A DNA stretch of 64,000 nt from an uncultured Bacteroidales bacterium (GTDB lineage: Bacteria; Bacteroidota; Bacteroidia; Bacteroidales; Bacteroidaceae): contig CACZJU010000012.1 of assembly GCA_902781515.1 (NCBI GenBank), forward strand, positions 1 to 64,000. The letters run 5' to 3'. Below are positions 7,521 through 64,000 of the stretch, piece by piece. Every line of letters begins with the position of its first letter. Position 1 is the stretch's first letter. The notes beneath the pieces were generated by a model, which was given only the letters and a program-made list of their open reading frames with translations, did no database searches and was not told the origin of the DNA. The position numbers were made by a program, and so were the translations under genes.

Positions 7521-8810
7521 TTATTCTACTGGAATGTCGGTATTCACGTTCTTGCTGCCAATGAGGGCATAGTATAGGATGTAGGCTGCACAGAGCAGGG
7601 GTACCCAGTATGAAATGAGGTAAGAACCGGTCCAGTCTGCTACGAGACCCTGAATGGCAACCATGATGGCGAAACCTACAACCATTGTCATGAATGCACC
7701 AGAAGCAATAGCGGTGTACTTACCAAGACCTTCTGTTGCGAGGTTGAAAATGCCGCCCCACATAACGCTGGCGCAGAGACCTACAAGCAGGAAGCAGAAA
7801 ATGCCAACGGGAACATCGCCCCACAAAATTGCCATATTTGTGTAATCGATACCGGGAACGCTAACTGCTGTTGATGTGGGCAGATAAATTCCCAGCAGCA
7901 ACAGAACGATGGCTGTTGAGCTTACGAAGGTCATCATGGCCTTTGTGCTAACCTTACCACCAACGCTGGCGCCAATGAATCGGCCGATAAGCATGAAGAG
8001 GAAGTAGATGGAGCCCAGTGTTCCTACGTAGCCGGCATCCATAGCCAAACCTGGTGTTGCTGCATCACCTGCTGCTGTCAGATATTGTAGAATGAATCCG
8101 GGAATACCCATCTCAATACCACCATACAAACCAATGGCAAGGATACCGAGGTTGAAGTGACGGAAAGAGAATGCGCTGTGTGGGTCTTTTTCACCATTCT
8201 TCTTTTCAACGGGCTGCTGAGGCTCTTCAATCTTAGTAAAGAGAATAACTACAAAAGCAATGACGAAGATAGCGAGAGCTATCATTAGGGCAGGAGTTGC
8301 GTCTGAAATCTTTGCCTTTGCTGCATCGCCGATGAGGGCACCCATGATGATGTAAACAGCAACGGCTGCTGTAGAGTTGAATACGCCACCGGTTTGGATG
8401 AGTTGGTTACCCTTGTTGCCACCACCACCGAGGATGTTCAGCATTGGGTTTACAACAGTGTTTAGAATGCACATGCAGGCACCTGAGATAAGTGCTCCGC
8501 AGAGGTAAACTGCCATACCGCCCCAACCTGATAACCACTGGACGATAATACCTGTGATACCTACTAATAGGCCGACAAGTGCTGTACGCTTGTAACCCCA
8601 GTGCTTAATCATTAATCCTGCGGGGAACCCCATCAGCAGGTAAGCACCGAAATTACCGTAGTTACCAATCATTGCCATAAAGTTGGTGGTGCCGAATTGG
8701 TTCTTAACGATGACACCCATTGGCGAACAAAGATTCGTCACGAAGGCAATCATAGCGAACAGGGCTATCATGACGATGATAGCACCCCATTGTTTCTTTT
8801 CTTGACTCAT
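7521..8810 (-). CDS. MFS sugar/H+ symporter, FucP/GluP family
   Basis: Inner-membrane transporter of 429 residues with about 12 hydrophobic helices. The N-terminal half has MFS features (NYGNFGAYLLMGFPAGLMIKHWGYKRTALVG) with the basic loop between helices 2 and 3. The overall layout resembles the fucose/glucose/galactose permease family. Placed between a cytosolic mutarotase and galK, it most likely imports galactose or glucose (inference). It lies 40 nt downstream of galM2. ATG at 8810 is the only sensible start. Confidence 0.88.
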   Translation of the reverse strand: MSQEKKQWGAIIVMIALFAMIAFVTNLCSPMGVIVKNQFGTTNFMAMIGNYGNFGAYLLMGFPAGLMIKHWGYKRTALVGLLVGITGIIVQWLSGWGGMAVYLCGALISGACMCILNTVVNPMLNILGGGGNKGNQLIQTGGVFNSTAAVAVYIIMGALIGDAAKAKISDATPALMIALAIFVIAFVVILFTKIEEPQQPVEKKNGEKDPHSAFSFRHFNLGILAIGLYGGIEMGIPGFILQYLTAAGDAATPGLAMDAGYVGTLGSIYFLFMLIGRFIGASVGGKVSTKAMMTFVSSTAIVLLLLGIYLPTSTAVSVPGIDYTNMAILWGDVPVGIFCFLLVGLCASVMWGGIFNLATEGLGKYTAIASGAFMTMVVGFAIMVAIQGLVADWTGSYLISYWVPLLCAAYILYYALIGSKNVNTDIPVE

Positions 8811-57499: not shown

Positions 57500-57533
57500 T
57501 TTACCATTTAGCCATTTACCATTTACCATTTGA
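57500..57533. repeat. Left inverted end of the four-helix-bundle cassette
   Basis: TTTACCATTTAGCCATTTAC and the following CATTTACCATTTGA form three heptamer-type units, matching the left end of the empty element at 55469-55494. Confidence 0.75.
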
Positions 57534-57538
57534 ATGTT

Positions 57539-57901
57539 ATGGAAAGCAGCGAACTGAGACTTAGGTTAAAGGAATTTGCCATCCGTATTATTAAAATGGT
57601 AGATTGTATGCCCCGGACAATATCGTCCGATGCAATAGCAAGGCAAATAGTTCGTTCTGGCACATCTCCGTCTGCTAATTATAGAGCAGCGCTTCTTGGA
57701 AAGTCCGACAAGGATTTCTTGAATAAGTTAAAGATGGTGGAAGAGGAACTTGATGAAACGCTTCATTGGTTGGAAATCATCATGGAAACAGAGATGGTGA
57801 AACCTGAACGTTTGGAAGACCTGCACAGTGAATGTCATGAATTGTTGAAGATAATTGTAAGTAGCATAGTTACGATGCGAAACAAAATAAACAAAGAATG
57901 A
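57539..57901 (+). CDS. Four-helix-bundle protein (23S rRNA intervening-sequence family)
   Basis: A 120-residue all-helical protein of the small family first seen encoded within 23S rRNA intervening sequences (TIGR02436/PF05635 type). LRLRLKEFAIRIIKMVDCMP begins helix 1, DAIARQIVRSGTSPSANYRAA is the family hallmark, KMVEEELDETLHWLEIIME and LHSECHELLKIIVSSIVTM complete the bundle. It is inserted between nqrC and nqrD in the same direction. Inverted GTAAATG-type repeats lie on both sides, so it looks like a small cassette. It is not needed for NQR in other bacteria. An alternative TTG start exists at 57530 inside the left repeat. Biochemical function is unknown. Confidence 0.88.
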   Translation: MESSELRLRLKEFAIRIIKMVDCMPRTISSDAIARQIVRSGTSPSANYRAALLGKSDKDFLNKLKMVEEELDETLHWLEIIMETEMVKPERLEDLHSECHELLKIIVSSIVTMRNKINKE

Positions 57902-60554: not shown

Positions 60555-60575
60555 AATCCCACCTTCAAATAATGA

Positions 60576-60606
60576 GCGACGCATCCATTCGGGTGCGTCG
60601 CTTTTT
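60576..60606 (+). terminator. Terminator of the nqr operon
   Basis: GCGACGCATCC pairs with GGGTGCGTCGC around an ATTC loop and is followed by TTTTTATTA. It separates the nqr operon from the AT-rich accessory region. Confidence 0.9.
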
Positions 60607-60670: not shown

Positions 60671-60776
60671 TTTGCTTTTCCGCTCACTTATTCGTAACTT
60701 TAACCTATGGTTTTAGTTACTTCCGTTCGGGAAATTCAAATATATTTGCTTTTCCGCTCACTTATTCGTAACTTTA
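60671..60776 (+). promoter_or_regulatory. Tandemly duplicated promoter-like sequence
   Basis: The same 32-nt stretch occurs at 60671-60702 and 60745-60776. Each copy has TTTG, then 20 nt (CTTTTCCGCTCACTTATTCG), then TAACTTTA, a near match to the Bacteroidetes -33/-7 promoter. The copies are offset by 74 nt. Both point toward the accessory genes starting at 61301. Only this 32-nt stretch is duplicated; the DNA between copies is not. Confidence 0.55.
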
Positions 60777-61300: not shown

Positions 61301-62131
61301 ATGAATAATAGACGAACGGACACGGAATTCAATGTAATGATGATATTTGCAAATGAGATGATTAGTCAGCTCAAAGTCAAATATTCAACAAGTTCTATTG
61401 ATAACTGGAAGGGGTATCTTGTACAACGGCTATCATTGATGTTACAGAGCTACCAGACATTTAGCCAATTGTTATTACAAAATAAAGATTTTATAACTGC
61501 AAATTCAATATTGAGGATGTTGGCTGATAATTTGGCTATCACAAAGTTTATATATGTCGATTACGATGAAGAAATGAGATTGCTAAGACATTATATGTTT
61601 CTATTGGATGGTTCCCTTACATTCATTAAACTCACGGATTCTATGGAGGATGTTGGCGACATAATTAAGGAAGCAAGAGAGAGAAGCAATGATGAAGCAC
61701 AATACATAAAAGGGCAAATCACAAAACTTCAATTGTACAAAGATAATAGTGACGCTTTAGATAAACTTATCAACATAGATAAGAGAGTGTGTAATTGGAA
61801 ATTCCGCGATTTCTCGGATAAGAAAGGTCTTCATTTTTCCGAATTATATAAGAAGCTAGACATCGCACCCAATATCGTAGCATACCTTGAGTATTTGTCC
61901 CAATTTGCACACGGGTTGGGTTTATATAGTCTTGGAACAGTAGCCTCTATACAGAATGTACCTTTCCTTCTAGAAATGAGAGATCTGCTATTGGGATTAC
62001 TTATAAACTATGTTTATAGGCTATTCTCTGAACATAGTTATAACAATGATAACGTTATGGAGTCTTTGCGTACAAAATTATCTCACTCAGAAATGGAACT
62101 CTTTATGGAAATTGCAAATAAAACTAAATAG
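61301..62131 (+). CDS. Uncharacterised helical protein, first gene of accessory operon (DUF5677-like?)
   Basis: A 276-residue, almost wholly helical protein without signal peptide or clear membrane segment. ANSILRMLADNLAITKFIYV near residue 67, the downstream stretch DEAQYIKGQITKLQLYKDN and the histidine in YLSQFAHGLGLYSLG near 205 recall the DUF5677 family (helical proteins with conserved R/E and H), but the match is by eye and weak. The gene is clearly more AT-rich than the nqr genes, suggesting horizontal transfer. It is followed after ten nt by the next gene, so the two are cotranscribed. Function unknown; the context points to a role with the GHKL ATPase at 62852. Confidence 0.8.
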   Translation: MNNRRTDTEFNVMMIFANEMISQLKVKYSTSSIDNWKGYLVQRLSLMLQSYQTFSQLLLQNKDFITANSILRMLADNLAITKFIYVDYDEEMRLLRHYMFLLDGSLTFIKLTDSMEDVGDIIKEARERSNDEAQYIKGQITKLQLYKDNSDALDKLINIDKRVCNWKFRDFSDKKGLHFSELYKKLDIAPNIVAYLEYLSQFAHGLGLYSLGTVASIQNVPFLLEMRDLLLGLLINYVYRLFSEHSYNNDNVMESLRTKLSHSEMELFMEIANKTK

Positions 62132-62141
62132 AACTATTATT

Positions 62142-62855
62142 ATGGAACTACTAAAAGACAAAATGTTTAATGGAATCTCTTTTGAAATACTCAATGATGG
62201 TTATCTCAAAAGCAATAACTACTATAGTATCATTATTAAAGCTACTAATCATAACGACAAGAAAAAGAAAGTCCAACTAGAAGCACGCTATATTTCAGTC
62301 GAAGAAGGGCTTCTTGACACTTATGGTTCGATAGACATGTTAGGAGTAGGGAGATTTCTTCAACCGAATTCTTTTGTTAAAGTTGCAATGGACTTTAATA
62401 ATTTGACGAGGTTGCATGATCAAGATCGCATGGAACTTGTTATAAACAAGGGGGCTATTGCTTCTTTACTATTAGTCAGAGAAAATGGACAATGGTACAT
62501 AAAAGAAAAAAAGGAAATGTTTGTCCTTAACAATGACTTAAAAAAGAAGATTGAACATTTTGAGGCAATTGAGGAACAATTCGGTATTACTCTTCAAAAC
62601 ATTTCTGTAAAAGTTGAAGATGAAAACACATTGAAATTATTTTGTGAAGTTCTCGCATTGAATGGCGAACTGCCAGAAGAGGACTTTACTATAAATGTCG
62701 CTATCTACGATATCAATAATGACATTATCTATACTGACAACGAATCAAAATATGCGGAAGAATTCAAGGGCTTTGAAGTACTGACCTTTAATTATATCAA
62801 GTTAGATATTACTGTAGATGAGATAAGTAAAATAAGAATTTATCCTACACGATGA
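62142..62855 (+). CDS. Uncharacterised beta-rich protein, second gene of accessory operon
   Basis: A 237-residue protein with no recognised family. MELLKDKMFNGISFEILNDG opens a beta-rich N-terminal half (YYSIIIKATNHNDKKKKVQL, then LEARYISVEEGLLDTYG) that looks like an immunoglobulin-like or C2-type sandwich. A helix (KKKIEHFEAIEEQFGI) separates it from a second beta domain (LKLFCEVLALNGELPEEDFT) with a repeat-like layout. The start at 62142 follows the previous stop by ten nt; a longer frame from 62010 overlaps that gene out of frame and is rejected. Its stop overlaps the next ATG (ATGA), showing tight coupling. Confidence 0.8.
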   Translation: MELLKDKMFNGISFEILNDGYLKSNNYYSIIIKATNHNDKKKKVQLEARYISVEEGLLDTYGSIDMLGVGRFLQPNSFVKVAMDFNNLTRLHDQDRMELVINKGAIASLLLVRENGQWYIKEKKEMFVLNNDLKKKIEHFEAIEEQFGITLQNISVKVEDENTLKLFCEVLALNGELPEEDFTINVAIYDINNDIIYTDNESKYAEEFKGFEVLTFNYIKLDITVDEISKIRIYPTR

Positions 62856-64000
62856 ATAAAGAATTATCAATACTGAGAGATTCTCTTATAGCCGAAGCAA
62901 AGAGTTCTCCCATGCTTCTGTCTGACCTGGCAGGACTGGAAGCGTATGTATCTGAAAGTTACAATAGTCGTTCTTTTATTGAACTATTGCAGAATGCAGA
63001 TGACGCTAAGGCAACAAAGTTTTACGTTAAGCGTTCTGGCGATTATCTGTTCGTTGCTAATAATGGACGACCTTTTAACATCAAGGACTTAGAAAGTCTA
63101 TGCCGTAGCGCGTCGTCAAATAAAGTTAGAGGAACGACGATTGGATATAGGGGAATCGGCTTCAAGTCTGTAGTCAGTTTCGCAAAAGAGGTACACCTGA
63201 TAAGTGGCGATTTTGAAATAACTTTCTCAAAAGAATTGTCAAAACAAATCGTTCCTCAGGCTCCAAAGGTTCCTTTGATAAGAATTCCTCATGAGCTGGA
63301 AAGGTCTGTAAAGGATGAATTAGCAGACGAAATTACGAAGATGCAGAGTGAAGGGTTTAATACGATCTTTATCTTTTCTGGAGTATTGGCTAATCAGATA
63401 GACGAGGAATATACTTCTTTTGCCAATACGACATTATTGTTCCTAAATAGCATCCAAGTCATCAAGATACATTTAACAAAGAAAGTGACAGCGAATATTG
63501 CGGTCATTGAAGAGAATGAAAGAGGACGTTATTTAAGGGTATCAACGACAGAGGCTATTTCTAACTGGTTTGTCTGCTCAGATTCCACATGCAGTATAGC
63601 ATTCTCCATGAATAAAGATAAGGTTGAGAGATTACCAAAGAACGAGGCCATTATCCATGCATTTCTCCCAACGGAGGATAGTTGCGGATTAGGTATAGTG
63701 GTAAATGGCGATTTTAGTACAGACCCGTCTCGCAGACATCTCATCATGGATGATACCACTATAAAAGTAATATCTAACCTCACACATCTCTATGCTTCTT
63801 TGCTAAAATACGCACTAGCAAACAAAGATAGAAATATGGTTGATGCATTGATGCCTTATTTTGACTGGAAACTGATTCAATTGATGAAACAGTCATTTGA
63901 AAAAGAATTTGCGATAAAGATTAAAAATGCTTTTGGCAAAGAACTATCAAATGTTAGACTTGCACCATCATGGTTGAATGCAGAGGATTTTTCCAAAATA
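62852..64000 (+). CDS. Sacsin-like GHKL (HATPase) protein, partial at window end
   Basis: The visible 383 residues start with a Bergerat-fold ATPase domain of the sacsin/NO VEIN type. The N-box is SFIELLQNADDA (Glu44, Asn48). VANNGRPF at about 68-75 corresponds to the G1 region, where the usual Asp is Asn. SSNKVRGTTIGYRGIGFKSV (88-107) is the lid with the G-x-G-x-K-S turn. This is followed by a Hsp90-like middle region (VHLISGDFEITFSKELSKQI) and GLGIVVNGDFSTDPSRRHLI near 290, also seen in sacsin repeats. Such proteins are typically very large, so most of it lies outside the window. It overlaps the preceding stop by ATGA. An NTP-driven role in phage defence is plausible (inference). Confidence 0.85.
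   Translation, partial: MNKELSILRDSLIAEAKSSPMLLSDLAGLEAYVSESYNSRSFIELLQNADDAKATKFYVKRSGDYLFVANNGRPFNIKDLESLCRSASSNKVRGTTIGYRGIGFKSVVSFAKEVHLISGDFEITFSKELSKQIVPQAPKVPLIRIPHELERSVKDELADEITKMQSEGFNTIFIFSGVLANQIDEEYTSFANTTLLFLNSIQVIKIHLTKKVTANIAVIEENERGRYLRVSTTEAISNWFVCSDSTCSIAFSMNKDKVERLPKNEAIIHAFLPTEDSCGLGIVVNGDFSTDPSRRHLIMDDTTIKVISNLTHLYASLLKYALANKDRNMVDALMPYFDWKLIQLMKQSFEKEFAIKIKNAFGKELSNVRLAPSWLNAEDFSKI

What the first reader, a model, noticed from the sequence alone, without database searches (positions are those of the whole stretch)
61301..64000. AT-rich three-gene operon: helical protein, beta-sandwich protein and sacsin-like GHKL ATPase
Seen: three genes packed with a ten-nt gap and an ATGA overlap, clearly lower in GC than the adjacent nqr operon and starting right after its terminator. 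The third has a Bergerat-fold ATPase with E-x3-N and G-x-G-x-K-S motifs of the sacsin/NO VEIN kind; the first two have no firm family. Known: large sacsin-like HATPases occur in bacterial genomes, often in defence or mobile neighbourhoods, and few have a known function. Inference: this is an accessory, possibly anti-phage system in which the two small proteins are sensor or effector partners. Most of the ATPase and any later genes are beyond the window.
Basis: partly seen in the sequence, partly recalled or inferred. Interest (0 to 1): 0.82.

Follow-up and report, generated by a model that had tools for sequence, protein, structure and literature searches.

The report
Modular GHKL ATPase-nuclease defence operon
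A mobile three-gene bacterial operon joins an ATP-driven probable DNA-cutting protein to exchangeable small partner proteins, and most likely works as a plug-in immune system against phages or other invading DNA.

Summary
The three genes are real: 61301-62131, 62142-62855 and 62852-64903 (the last runs 903 bases past the window). The third protein is compact (683 aa), not large: a sacsin-like GHKL ATPase ending in a NO VEIN (NOV_C/DUF3883) domain with an intact D...E-V-K nuclease-type motif. Its N-terminal half resembles anti-phage TmtA (Tiamat, 1.9e-56), but it is far shorter. The second protein models as two beta-sandwich domains; its profile hit 4 of 399 family genomes, each time beside this ATPase. 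The first (DUF5677-like) is one of several exchangeable partners; other loci have other small proteins, an added FtsK-like translocase, or only a regulator there. In distant loci the ATPase accompanies an ankyrin fusion or a complete PARIS pair. Trees of three segments of the locus conflict (AU p below 1e-4 for the window's groupings tested), so adaptor and ATPase have different histories. The ATPase is patchy, was not found after nqrF in 10 of 10 congeners extended, and elsewhere lies on a phage-like contig, a plasmid and beside an integrase. Best reading: a modular anti-phage/anti-mobile-DNA system, a new variant of GHKL-nuclease defence. Function is untested.

The parts
61301..62131 (+). 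ORF1, 276 aa, DUF5677-like protein (helical by my reading; no structure predicted); proposed sensor/specificity partner (exchangeable)
   Evidence: Pfam DUF5677 E 2.8e-4, below Pfam's cut-off; 59% identical gene in L018 at the same place; 71% identical gene in L135; distant relative inside a type I R-M operon (L136)
62142..62855 (+). ORF2, 237 aa, adaptor of two beta-sandwich domains
   Evidence: AlphaFold2 model, mean pLDDT 84.1, pTM 0.54; Foldseek gives only generic Ig-like/beta-sandwich matches with TM-scores under 0.3 in the 50 rows shown; profile hits 4 of 399 genomes, each beside the ATPase
62142..62540 (+). ORF2 N-terminal domain (residues 1 to about 133), the fast-changing part
   Evidence: less conserved than the C-terminal domain in 62 of 66 pairs; tree in conflict with the ATPase
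62541..62852 (+). ORF2 C-terminal domain (residues about 134-237), the part shared with distant loci
   Evidence: hhalign A1 residues 132-237 against L019/L020 domains: probability 96.9, E 1.4e-10
62852..64000 (+). ORF3 (window part; ends at 64903 on contig C12), GHKL ATPase + C-terminal NOV_C PD-(D/E)XK-like domain
   Evidence: NCBIfam P_loop_sacsin 1.7e-21; Pfam NOV_C 1.4e-13 at residues 572-645; PADLOC TmtA 1.9e-56 at residues 3-367; Foldseek of the L018 orthologue: sacsin SR1, Hsp90, MutL
62981..63004 (+). ORF3 N-box E44-LLQNADD (ATP-binding motif I)
   Evidence: invariant E44, N48, D50, D51 in 14 aligned homologues
63146..63169 (+). ORF3 YRGIGFKS (residues 99-106, glycine-rich ATP lid motif)
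   Evidence: invariant in 14 aligned homologues; L085, not in that alignment, has YRGVGFKS
60574..60603 (+). terminator-like hairpin ending the nqr operon (boundary)
   Evidence: 13-pair stem, 8 G-C, T-rich tail

Best explanation
It is an accessory, horizontally exchanged defence operon. ORF3 is the engine and effector: its GHKL (Bergerat) domain probably closes as an ATP-bound dimer and thereby switches on the C-terminal PD-(D/E)XK-like NOV_C domain, which cuts DNA (phage DNA, or DNA in general as suicide). ORF2 is a two-domain beta-sandwich adaptor: the conserved C-terminal domain docks on the ATPase, the variable N-terminal domain faces the sensor or target. ORF1 (DUF5677-like) is a plug-in sensor/specificity subunit, replaced by others in related loci. 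Shown by computation: gene order, domains, motifs, ORF2-ATPase linkage in the genomes searched, differing histories of the modules, patchiness, mobile context. Inferred: dimer switch, docking, DNA cutting, phage as target.
For: Domains and motifs. The D...E-V-K motif is present by pattern in 19 of 19 full-length sequences compared (window included; L007 and L008 are identical), the N-box and GIGFKS-type motifs in 18 of 19 by pattern and in L085 by eye (EMLQNADDA, YRGVGFKS). Linkage: ORF2 profile hits 4 of 399 family genomes, each directly upstream of the ATPase. Module histories: the GHKL tree joins the window with L007 (95/99), the ORF2-N tree with L018 and L009 (99/99), the ORF2-C tree with L009 and L013 (98/99); AU p 6.2e-5 and 1.2e-6 against window+L007 in the two ORF2 trees, 4.7e-53 against window+L018+L009 in the GHKL tree. 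Patchiness: ATPase in 2 of 139 genus, 5 of 399 family, 1 of 395 phylum genomes, the window's own counted each time. Mobile context: phage-like contig L124, plasmid L085, integrase next to L017 and on L135. Defence context: PARIS AriA 6e-61 and AriB 3e-97 inside the L122 operon, AbiL pair upstream in L007, type I R-M in L019. Precedent: VcSduA, GHKL ATPase + PD-(D/E)xK nuclease; variants in either domain abolished its anti-phage activity, and it appears to restrict phage while the host survives (PMC12137116, passages). DUF3883 is described as a novel REase domain (PMC3710099, passage).
Against: No experiment on any member. No PDB sequence match covers the NOV_C domain convincingly, and its nuclease activity is inferred from motif and family. 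TmtA similarity covers mainly the ATPase half. ORF1 is below Pfam's cut-off for DUF5677, and 5 of the 7 places with an ORF1 relative are not beside this ATPase. The second ATPase branch has no ORF2 (4 of 4 loci). Neighbouring genes sent to PADLOC were chosen by me, without a random control, and several loci (for example L010, L012, L013) have no defence neighbour that I recognised. The phages collection has no match. Tree conflict could also come from differential loss of tandem ORF2 copies, which exist in L011, L017 and L022.
Confidence: 0.68

Rival explanations
1. It is simply a short form of Tiamat: a single-gene system whose upstream genes are passengers.
For: N-terminal half hits TmtA models at 1.9e-56, and the C-terminal NOV_C region of relatives aligns near the end of one TmtA model (L122 562-654 to 1394-1490 of 1563). 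The second branch of the ATPase does without ORF2.
Against: Length 683 against models of 1063-1782; ORF2 with translational overlap precedes the ATPase in 13 of 13 loci L007-L018 and L022, and its C-terminal domain recurs beside the ATPase in two betaproteobacterial records. A passenger would be expected to be lost.
Confidence: 0.13
2. An Hsp90/sacsin-like chaperone or stress machine, with NOV_C as a binding rather than cutting domain.
For: Best structural matches of the ATPase are Hsp90s and sacsin SR1; sacsin is reported to act as a chaperone (PMC3710099, passage).
Against: Patchy distribution and mobile context; the D...E-V-K motif in 19 of 19 sequences; a PARIS pair in one operon.
Confidence: 0.09
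3. A selfish addiction or plasmid/element-exclusion module serving its carrier rather than host defence.
For: Found on a plasmid, a phage-like contig and an integrase-bearing element.
Against: In the window it lies between the nqr operon and RhuM/Fic genes, with no integrase or transfer gene among the ORFs that follow it on the contig (my reading); I saw no small antitoxin-like partner common to the loci.
Confidence: 0.1

Closest known systems
Tiamat (TmtA), PADLOC-DB family
   Same: N-terminal sacsin-like GHKL ATPase (1.9e-56 over residues 3-367); a NOV_C-like end in one TmtA model by alignment of relatives
   Different: 683 aa against 1063-1782; sits with ORF2 and a variable ORF1 in an operon. 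Tiamat is listed among systems of unknown mechanism (PMC10482375, passage)
VcSduA (GHKL-type Shedu, Vibrio cholerae)
   Same: N-terminal GHKL ATPase plus C-terminal PD-(D/E)xK nuclease; anti-phage, both domains needed (PMC12137116, passages)
   Different: nuclease is DUF4263, here NOV_C/DUF3883; no adaptor gene mentioned in the passages read
paraMORC / MutL-like GHKL proteins of R-M systems
   Same: GHKL ATPases in restriction-modification neighbourhoods (PMC2292703, title and passages; PMC3710099, passage)
   Different: no occurrence of sacsin or DUF3883 in PMC2292703; no beta-sandwich adaptor known to me
PARIS (AriA-AriB)
   Same: a complete AriA/AriB pair sits between the upstream gene and the GHKL-NOV gene in L122
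   Different: not present in the window; a GHKL-NOV gene is not part of PARIS as I know it (recalled)

Membership tests
Tiamat (TmtA) | GHKL ATPase N-terminal region of TmtA | tested here: met
   PADLOC TmtA 1.9e-56, residues 3-367
Tiamat (TmtA) | large protein (PADLOC models 1063-1782 positions) | tested here: not met
   683 aa; 676-715 aa in the 19 sequences compared
Tiamat (TmtA) | acts as one gene (recalled) | tested here: inconclusive
   linked upstream ORF2 with overlap speaks against it; independence of function is not testable here
Shedu (SduA) | DUF4263 nuclease domain | tested here: not met
   no DUF4263 match in Pfam at E <= 1; NOV_C 1.4e-13 instead
Shedu (SduA) | GHKL + C-terminal PD-(D/E)XK architecture (as in VcSduA) | tested here: met
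   P_loop_sacsin 1.7e-21 and D-x13-E-V-K motif
Bacterial sacsin-like / NOV_C (DUF3883) proteins | sacsin-type ATP-binding domain and NOV_C domain above curated cut-offs | tested here: met
   P_loop_sacsin 76.4 bits against cut-off 50; NOV_C 51.1 against 22.1
DUF5677 (ORF1) | Pfam gathering score | tested here: not met
   21.4 bits against 27.1; called DUF5677-like only
Anti-phage defence system | reduces phage infection | not testable with these tools
   no experiment

The most novel reading that the evidence does not exclude
A previously undescribed modular immune platform: a compact GHKL-NOV nuclease chassis that accepts exchangeable sensors through a two-domain beta-sandwich adaptor (DUF5677, other small proteins, FtsK-like translocase, ankyrin fusion) or carries a PARIS pair in its operon, with specificity swapped by recombination within and beside the adaptor gene, in the manner of HsdS specificity exchange.
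Probability: 0.45. Interest if true: 0.78.

Novelty: new variant of a known kind. Interest (0 to 1): 0.62.

Why it matters
Sacsin-type GHKL ATPases recur in bacterial defence, yet their mechanism is largely open (Tiamat is listed among systems of unknown mechanism in PMC10482375, passage). A 683-aa version with its own adaptor, in which the sensor side varies while the engine stays nearly constant, gives a small, testable system: one can ask what the adaptor recognises by comparing natural variants with near-identical ATPases (window and L007: 98/93/96% in the three ATPase parts, 42% in the adaptor N-domain).

Tried and rejected
Weak ORF2 hits in three Bacteroidales genomes (E 2e-5 to 6e-4) are RecD/Dda-like helicases by my reading of their ORFs and were dropped. 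HEPN-type RNase for ORF1: residues shared by 7 of 7 DUF5677-like proteins aligned (among them R, D, Y, W and Q-x2-HGL) do not show an R-x4-6-H motif (the motif as named in PMC3710099), so not adopted. Common ancestry of all first genes: BLAST among them gives convincing links only within subfamilies. ORF2 in plasmids and in IMG/VR with profile A1: nothing. ORF1 in plasmids, window and L018 copies: nothing. ATPase in the phages collection: nothing. Rfam on L002: nothing. tRNA at the insertion points: ARAGORN found none in 17 of 18 loci scanned; L010 has two tRNA-Lys about 7 kb downstream. Profiles against PDB sequences: nothing for ORF2, two weak NCK1 matches for ORF1 (E 0.61 and 0.81), weak sacsin SR1 matches for ORF3 (best E 0.002).

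In the mosaic analysis 12 loci were used; L008 (same as L007) and L022 (ATPase cut) were left out, and for loci with two ORF2 copies the one next to the ATPase was used, so loss of tandem copies is a rival to recombination as the cause of conflict. The AU clades were chosen after seeing identities, without correction for several tests; one result is weak (0.039, L012+L013+L014+L016 in the GHKL tree), and the window's ORF2-C clade (L009, L013) was not tested in the other trees. Long branches L015 and L017 meet in the GHKL tree. 'Helical' for first genes is my reading of sequences; only ORF2 and the L018 orthologue of ORF3 were modelled.
Full report
OBSERVATION. The window's contig (C12 of the held genome, 67,343 bases) carries ORF3 to 64903; then come a RhuM family gene (65069-66082; Pfam 1.3e-104) and a Fic gene (66194-67237; Pfam 3.2e-15) before the contig ends. 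The GC drop is the strongest of the window (0.345-0.352 in the three lowest 2-kb stretches against a mean of 0.482, sd 0.039). The nqr terminator-like hairpin lies at 60574-60603, about 700 bases upstream of ORF1.

WHAT THE PROTEINS ARE. ORF3: NCBIfam P_loop_sacsin 1.7e-21, Pfam NOV_C 1.4e-13 at residues 572-645 and SACS 1.7e-8, PADLOC TmtA 1.9e-56 over residues 3-367. Among 14 aligned homologues the ATPase motifs E44-LLQNADD, N70/G72 and IGYRGIGFKS (97-106), and, in the C-terminal part, E572, D597, E611, V612 and K613 (L018 numbering) are invariant. In the window protein the latter read GFD-LEGSDPNGKNIYI-EVK, residues 590-608, the shape of a PD-(D/E)XK active site (motif recalled; DUF3883 is called a novel REase domain in PMC3710099, passage). 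An AlphaFold2 model of the 688-aa L018 orthologue (pLDDT 76.3, pTM 0.66) matches Hsp90s, sacsin SR1 and MutL (50 rows shown). I used the L018 orthologue because part of the window's own protein lies outside the window. ORF2: the model (pLDDT 84.1, pTM 0.54) shows two beta-sandwich domains with a short helical linker; Foldseek gives only generic Ig-like matches with low TM-scores; Pfam gives one sub-threshold match (DUF3316, E 0.11), NCBIfam and PADLOC none, PHROGs two weak ones of unknown function (1.6e-4, 5.7e-4) and two at E above 0.2. ORF1: DUF5677-like, below cut-off.

RECURRENCE. One scan of genome contigs with ORF3 kept 78 loci; L007-L022 hold relatives along the whole protein (L022 is cut by its contig end), L023-L084 mostly share only the ATPase half. 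ORF2 relatives were found by tblastn in 14 of the 78 loci: L007-L018, L020 and L022. In 13 of 13 loci L007-L018 and L022 ORF2 lies directly upstream of the ATPase with a 4-nt overlap; 12 are in Bacteroidales records, L022 in a short record titled Bacillota. Profile searches: ATPase in 2 of 139 genus genomes, 5 of 399 family genomes and 1 of 395 phylum genomes, the window's own; ORF2 in 4 of 399 family genomes, each adjacent to the ATPase. The fifth ATPase genome, G492, belongs to another branch without ORF2.

THE VARIABLE SIDE. Upstream of ORF2: DUF5677-like in the window and L018, where an 842-aa DUF4236 + FtsK protein precedes it with an ATGA overlap; a 206-208-aa protein in L010, L011 and L013; one or two repeats fused to ORF2 in L011, L013 and L022; tandem ORF2 copies in L011, L017 and L022; a small XRE-type regulator in L009, L016, L011 and (with a masked stretch) L008, of which only the L016 copy was run on Pfam (9.3e-8), the others being grouped with it by BLAST. 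In G695 a DUF5677-like gene and two repeat genes stand at the end of contig C26 (L135) after an integrase, a DUF3987/PriCT-2 protein and a Mob-like protein (Mob_Pre 0.0053, sub-threshold), while ORF2 and the ATPase open contig C185 (= L014). The two contig ends carry inverted copies of one 74-base sequence (97%), as expected if an insertion sequence broke the assembly there; adjacency is inferred, not shown. In two betaproteobacterial records the ORF2 C-terminal domain occurs downstream of the ATPase as small genes (L019, L020) and as an ankyrin fusion (L020); profile comparison gives probability 96.9, E 1.4e-10, over residues 132-237. A second ATPase branch (L021, L085, L122, L124; 100/100 support, long branches) has a 209-226-aa gene upstream in 4 of 4, weakly related to each other (best E 5e-6), and no ORF2 recognised; in L122 a PARIS pair (AriA 6e-61, AriB 3e-97) lies between the two.

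EXCHANGE. Among 66 pairs of 12 loci the ORF2 C-domain is more conserved than the N-domain in 62; mean identities are 42.5% (ORF2-N), 62.2% (ORF2-C), 82.9% (ATPase 1-350), 64.3% (351-565) and 86.0% (566-683); ORF2-C identity follows the ATPase (Spearman 0.56), ORF2-N hardly (0.22; pairs are not independent). The window and L007 have ATPase parts 98/93/96% identical but ORF2-N 42% and ORF2-C 66%. In 30-codon windows of DNA along ORF2 and ORF3, identity between these two is 43-62% for starts at codons 1-121, 77-78% at 131-141, 49-55% at 181-191, then 90-97% for starts from codon 221 to 391, the last shown. Trees conflict: GHKL joins the window with L007 (95/99), ORF2-N with L018 and L009 (99/99), ORF2-C with L009 and L013 (98/99). 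AU tests reject window+L007 in ORF2-N (p 6.2e-5) and ORF2-C (1.2e-6), window+L018+L009 in GHKL (4.7e-53) and ORF2-C (2.5e-7), L012+L016 in GHKL (1.9e-9), and the GHKL clade L018+L009+L016+L011 in both ORF2 trees (4.4e-69; 7.2e-5). Rate differences alone would not give such conflict; recombination would, and so might differential loss of tandem ORF2 copies. Either way the sensor side turns over against a steady engine.

CONTEXT. After nqrF, homology with the window stops at the end of the gene in 10 of 10 congeners extended (of 12 other same-genus genomes), and no relative of ORF3 is found in those stretches of 2.6 to 13.8 kb. Elsewhere: L124, a phage-like contig, has tail-type genes, an amidase and a small membrane protein (my reading of the ORFs) directly before the upstream gene and the ATPase; L085 is a Planococcus plasmid predicted mobilisable; L017 has a phage-family integrase upstream, and L018 shares that element end but only about the first 100 bases of the integrase gene. 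Defence neighbours among genes that I chose to scan: AbiL pair in L007 (2e-79, 1.5e-22), type I R-M in L019 (7e-189, 3e-104), a PDC-S02 protein in L011 (1e-131), Fic in L015 (3e-35). This was not controlled against random loci. An ORF1 relative sits between HsdS and HsdR-like genes in L136; it does not itself reach E 0.01 against Pfam.

HOW IT PROBABLY WORKS. GHKL ATPases close as dimers on ATP (established knowledge). In VcSduA a GHKL domain is hypothesised to control a C-terminal PD-(D/E)xK nuclease; variants in either domain abolished anti-phage activity, and growth data were taken to mean direct restriction of phage with host survival (PMC12137116, passages). By analogy ORF3 would be held inactive, ORF2's conserved C-domain would dock on it, and a trigger sensed through ORF2's N-domain and ORF1 would allow closure and DNA cutting. 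Every step after domain identity is inference. Whether cutting is specific (restriction-like) or general (suicide) cannot be told.

LITERATURE. Searches (sacsin/DUF3883/anti-phage; Tiamat/GHKL; DUF5677; sacsin-like operons; Tiamat/HATPase; NO VEIN; PARIS with Tiamat) list no title or abstract start describing this operon; two searches showed only 20 of 687 and 10 of 114 papers. Papers seen as passages only: PMC12137116, PMC3710099, PMC10482375, PMC13092281 (one figure-legend mention of HATPase, none of sacsin, Tiamat or DUF3883) and PMC2292703. Preprints and most subscription journals, including the original Tiamat report (recalled), are not in the library, so absence from print is not shown.

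VERDICT. Real, accessory, modular, probably defensive; a new variant of GHKL-nuclease defence rather than a member of Tiamat or Shedu.

Noticed in passing
window 57530-57901: A 23S rRNA-intervening-sequence protein family gene (Pfam 5.2e-15) sits inside the nqr operon between nqrC and nqrD, with GC 0.392; an odd insertion into a housekeeping operon.
   Followed up: partly
L002:7967-8084 and L002:9078-9195 (contig C12, beyond the window): Two 118-nt copies, 89% identical, directly precede the RhuM gene and the Fic gene; a search of the own genome found these two plus a 30-base partial match on C18. A shared leader or mobile promoter cassette of unknown role.
   Followed up: partly
window 60671-60702 and 60745-60776: Perfect 32-nt direct repeat, starts 74 nt apart, between the nqr operon and the trio; a similar stretch occurs at L012:10002-10125 (70%).
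   Followed up: no
L018:5931-8459: 842-aa protein with DUF4236 and FtsK alpha, motor and gamma domains overlaps the DUF5677-like gene; the FtsK part resembles SspH models (9.8e-42). A DNA translocase as a possible added module of this system.
   Followed up: partly
L122:3114-4834: PARIS AriA/AriB pair between an upstream gene and the GHKL-NOV gene, which overlaps AriB: a possible composite defence operon.
   Followed up: partly
L018:5086-5542, L017:5630-6009 and 8028-8116: Same element end in both; L018 keeps about the first 100 bases of the integrase gene and then continues with DNA that in L017 lies 2 kb further on, so its system probably lies on a decayed integrative element; related end sequence also at L016:7989, L013:428 and L018:15476.
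   Followed up: partly
L137 and L138 (loci with ORF1 relatives): ORF1-like genes between kinase-like genes, next to AlbA-like, ADP-ribosyltransferase-like and (L138) phosphatase-like genes (my reading of the ORFs), suggesting that such proteins are recurring partners in conflict systems.
   Followed up: no
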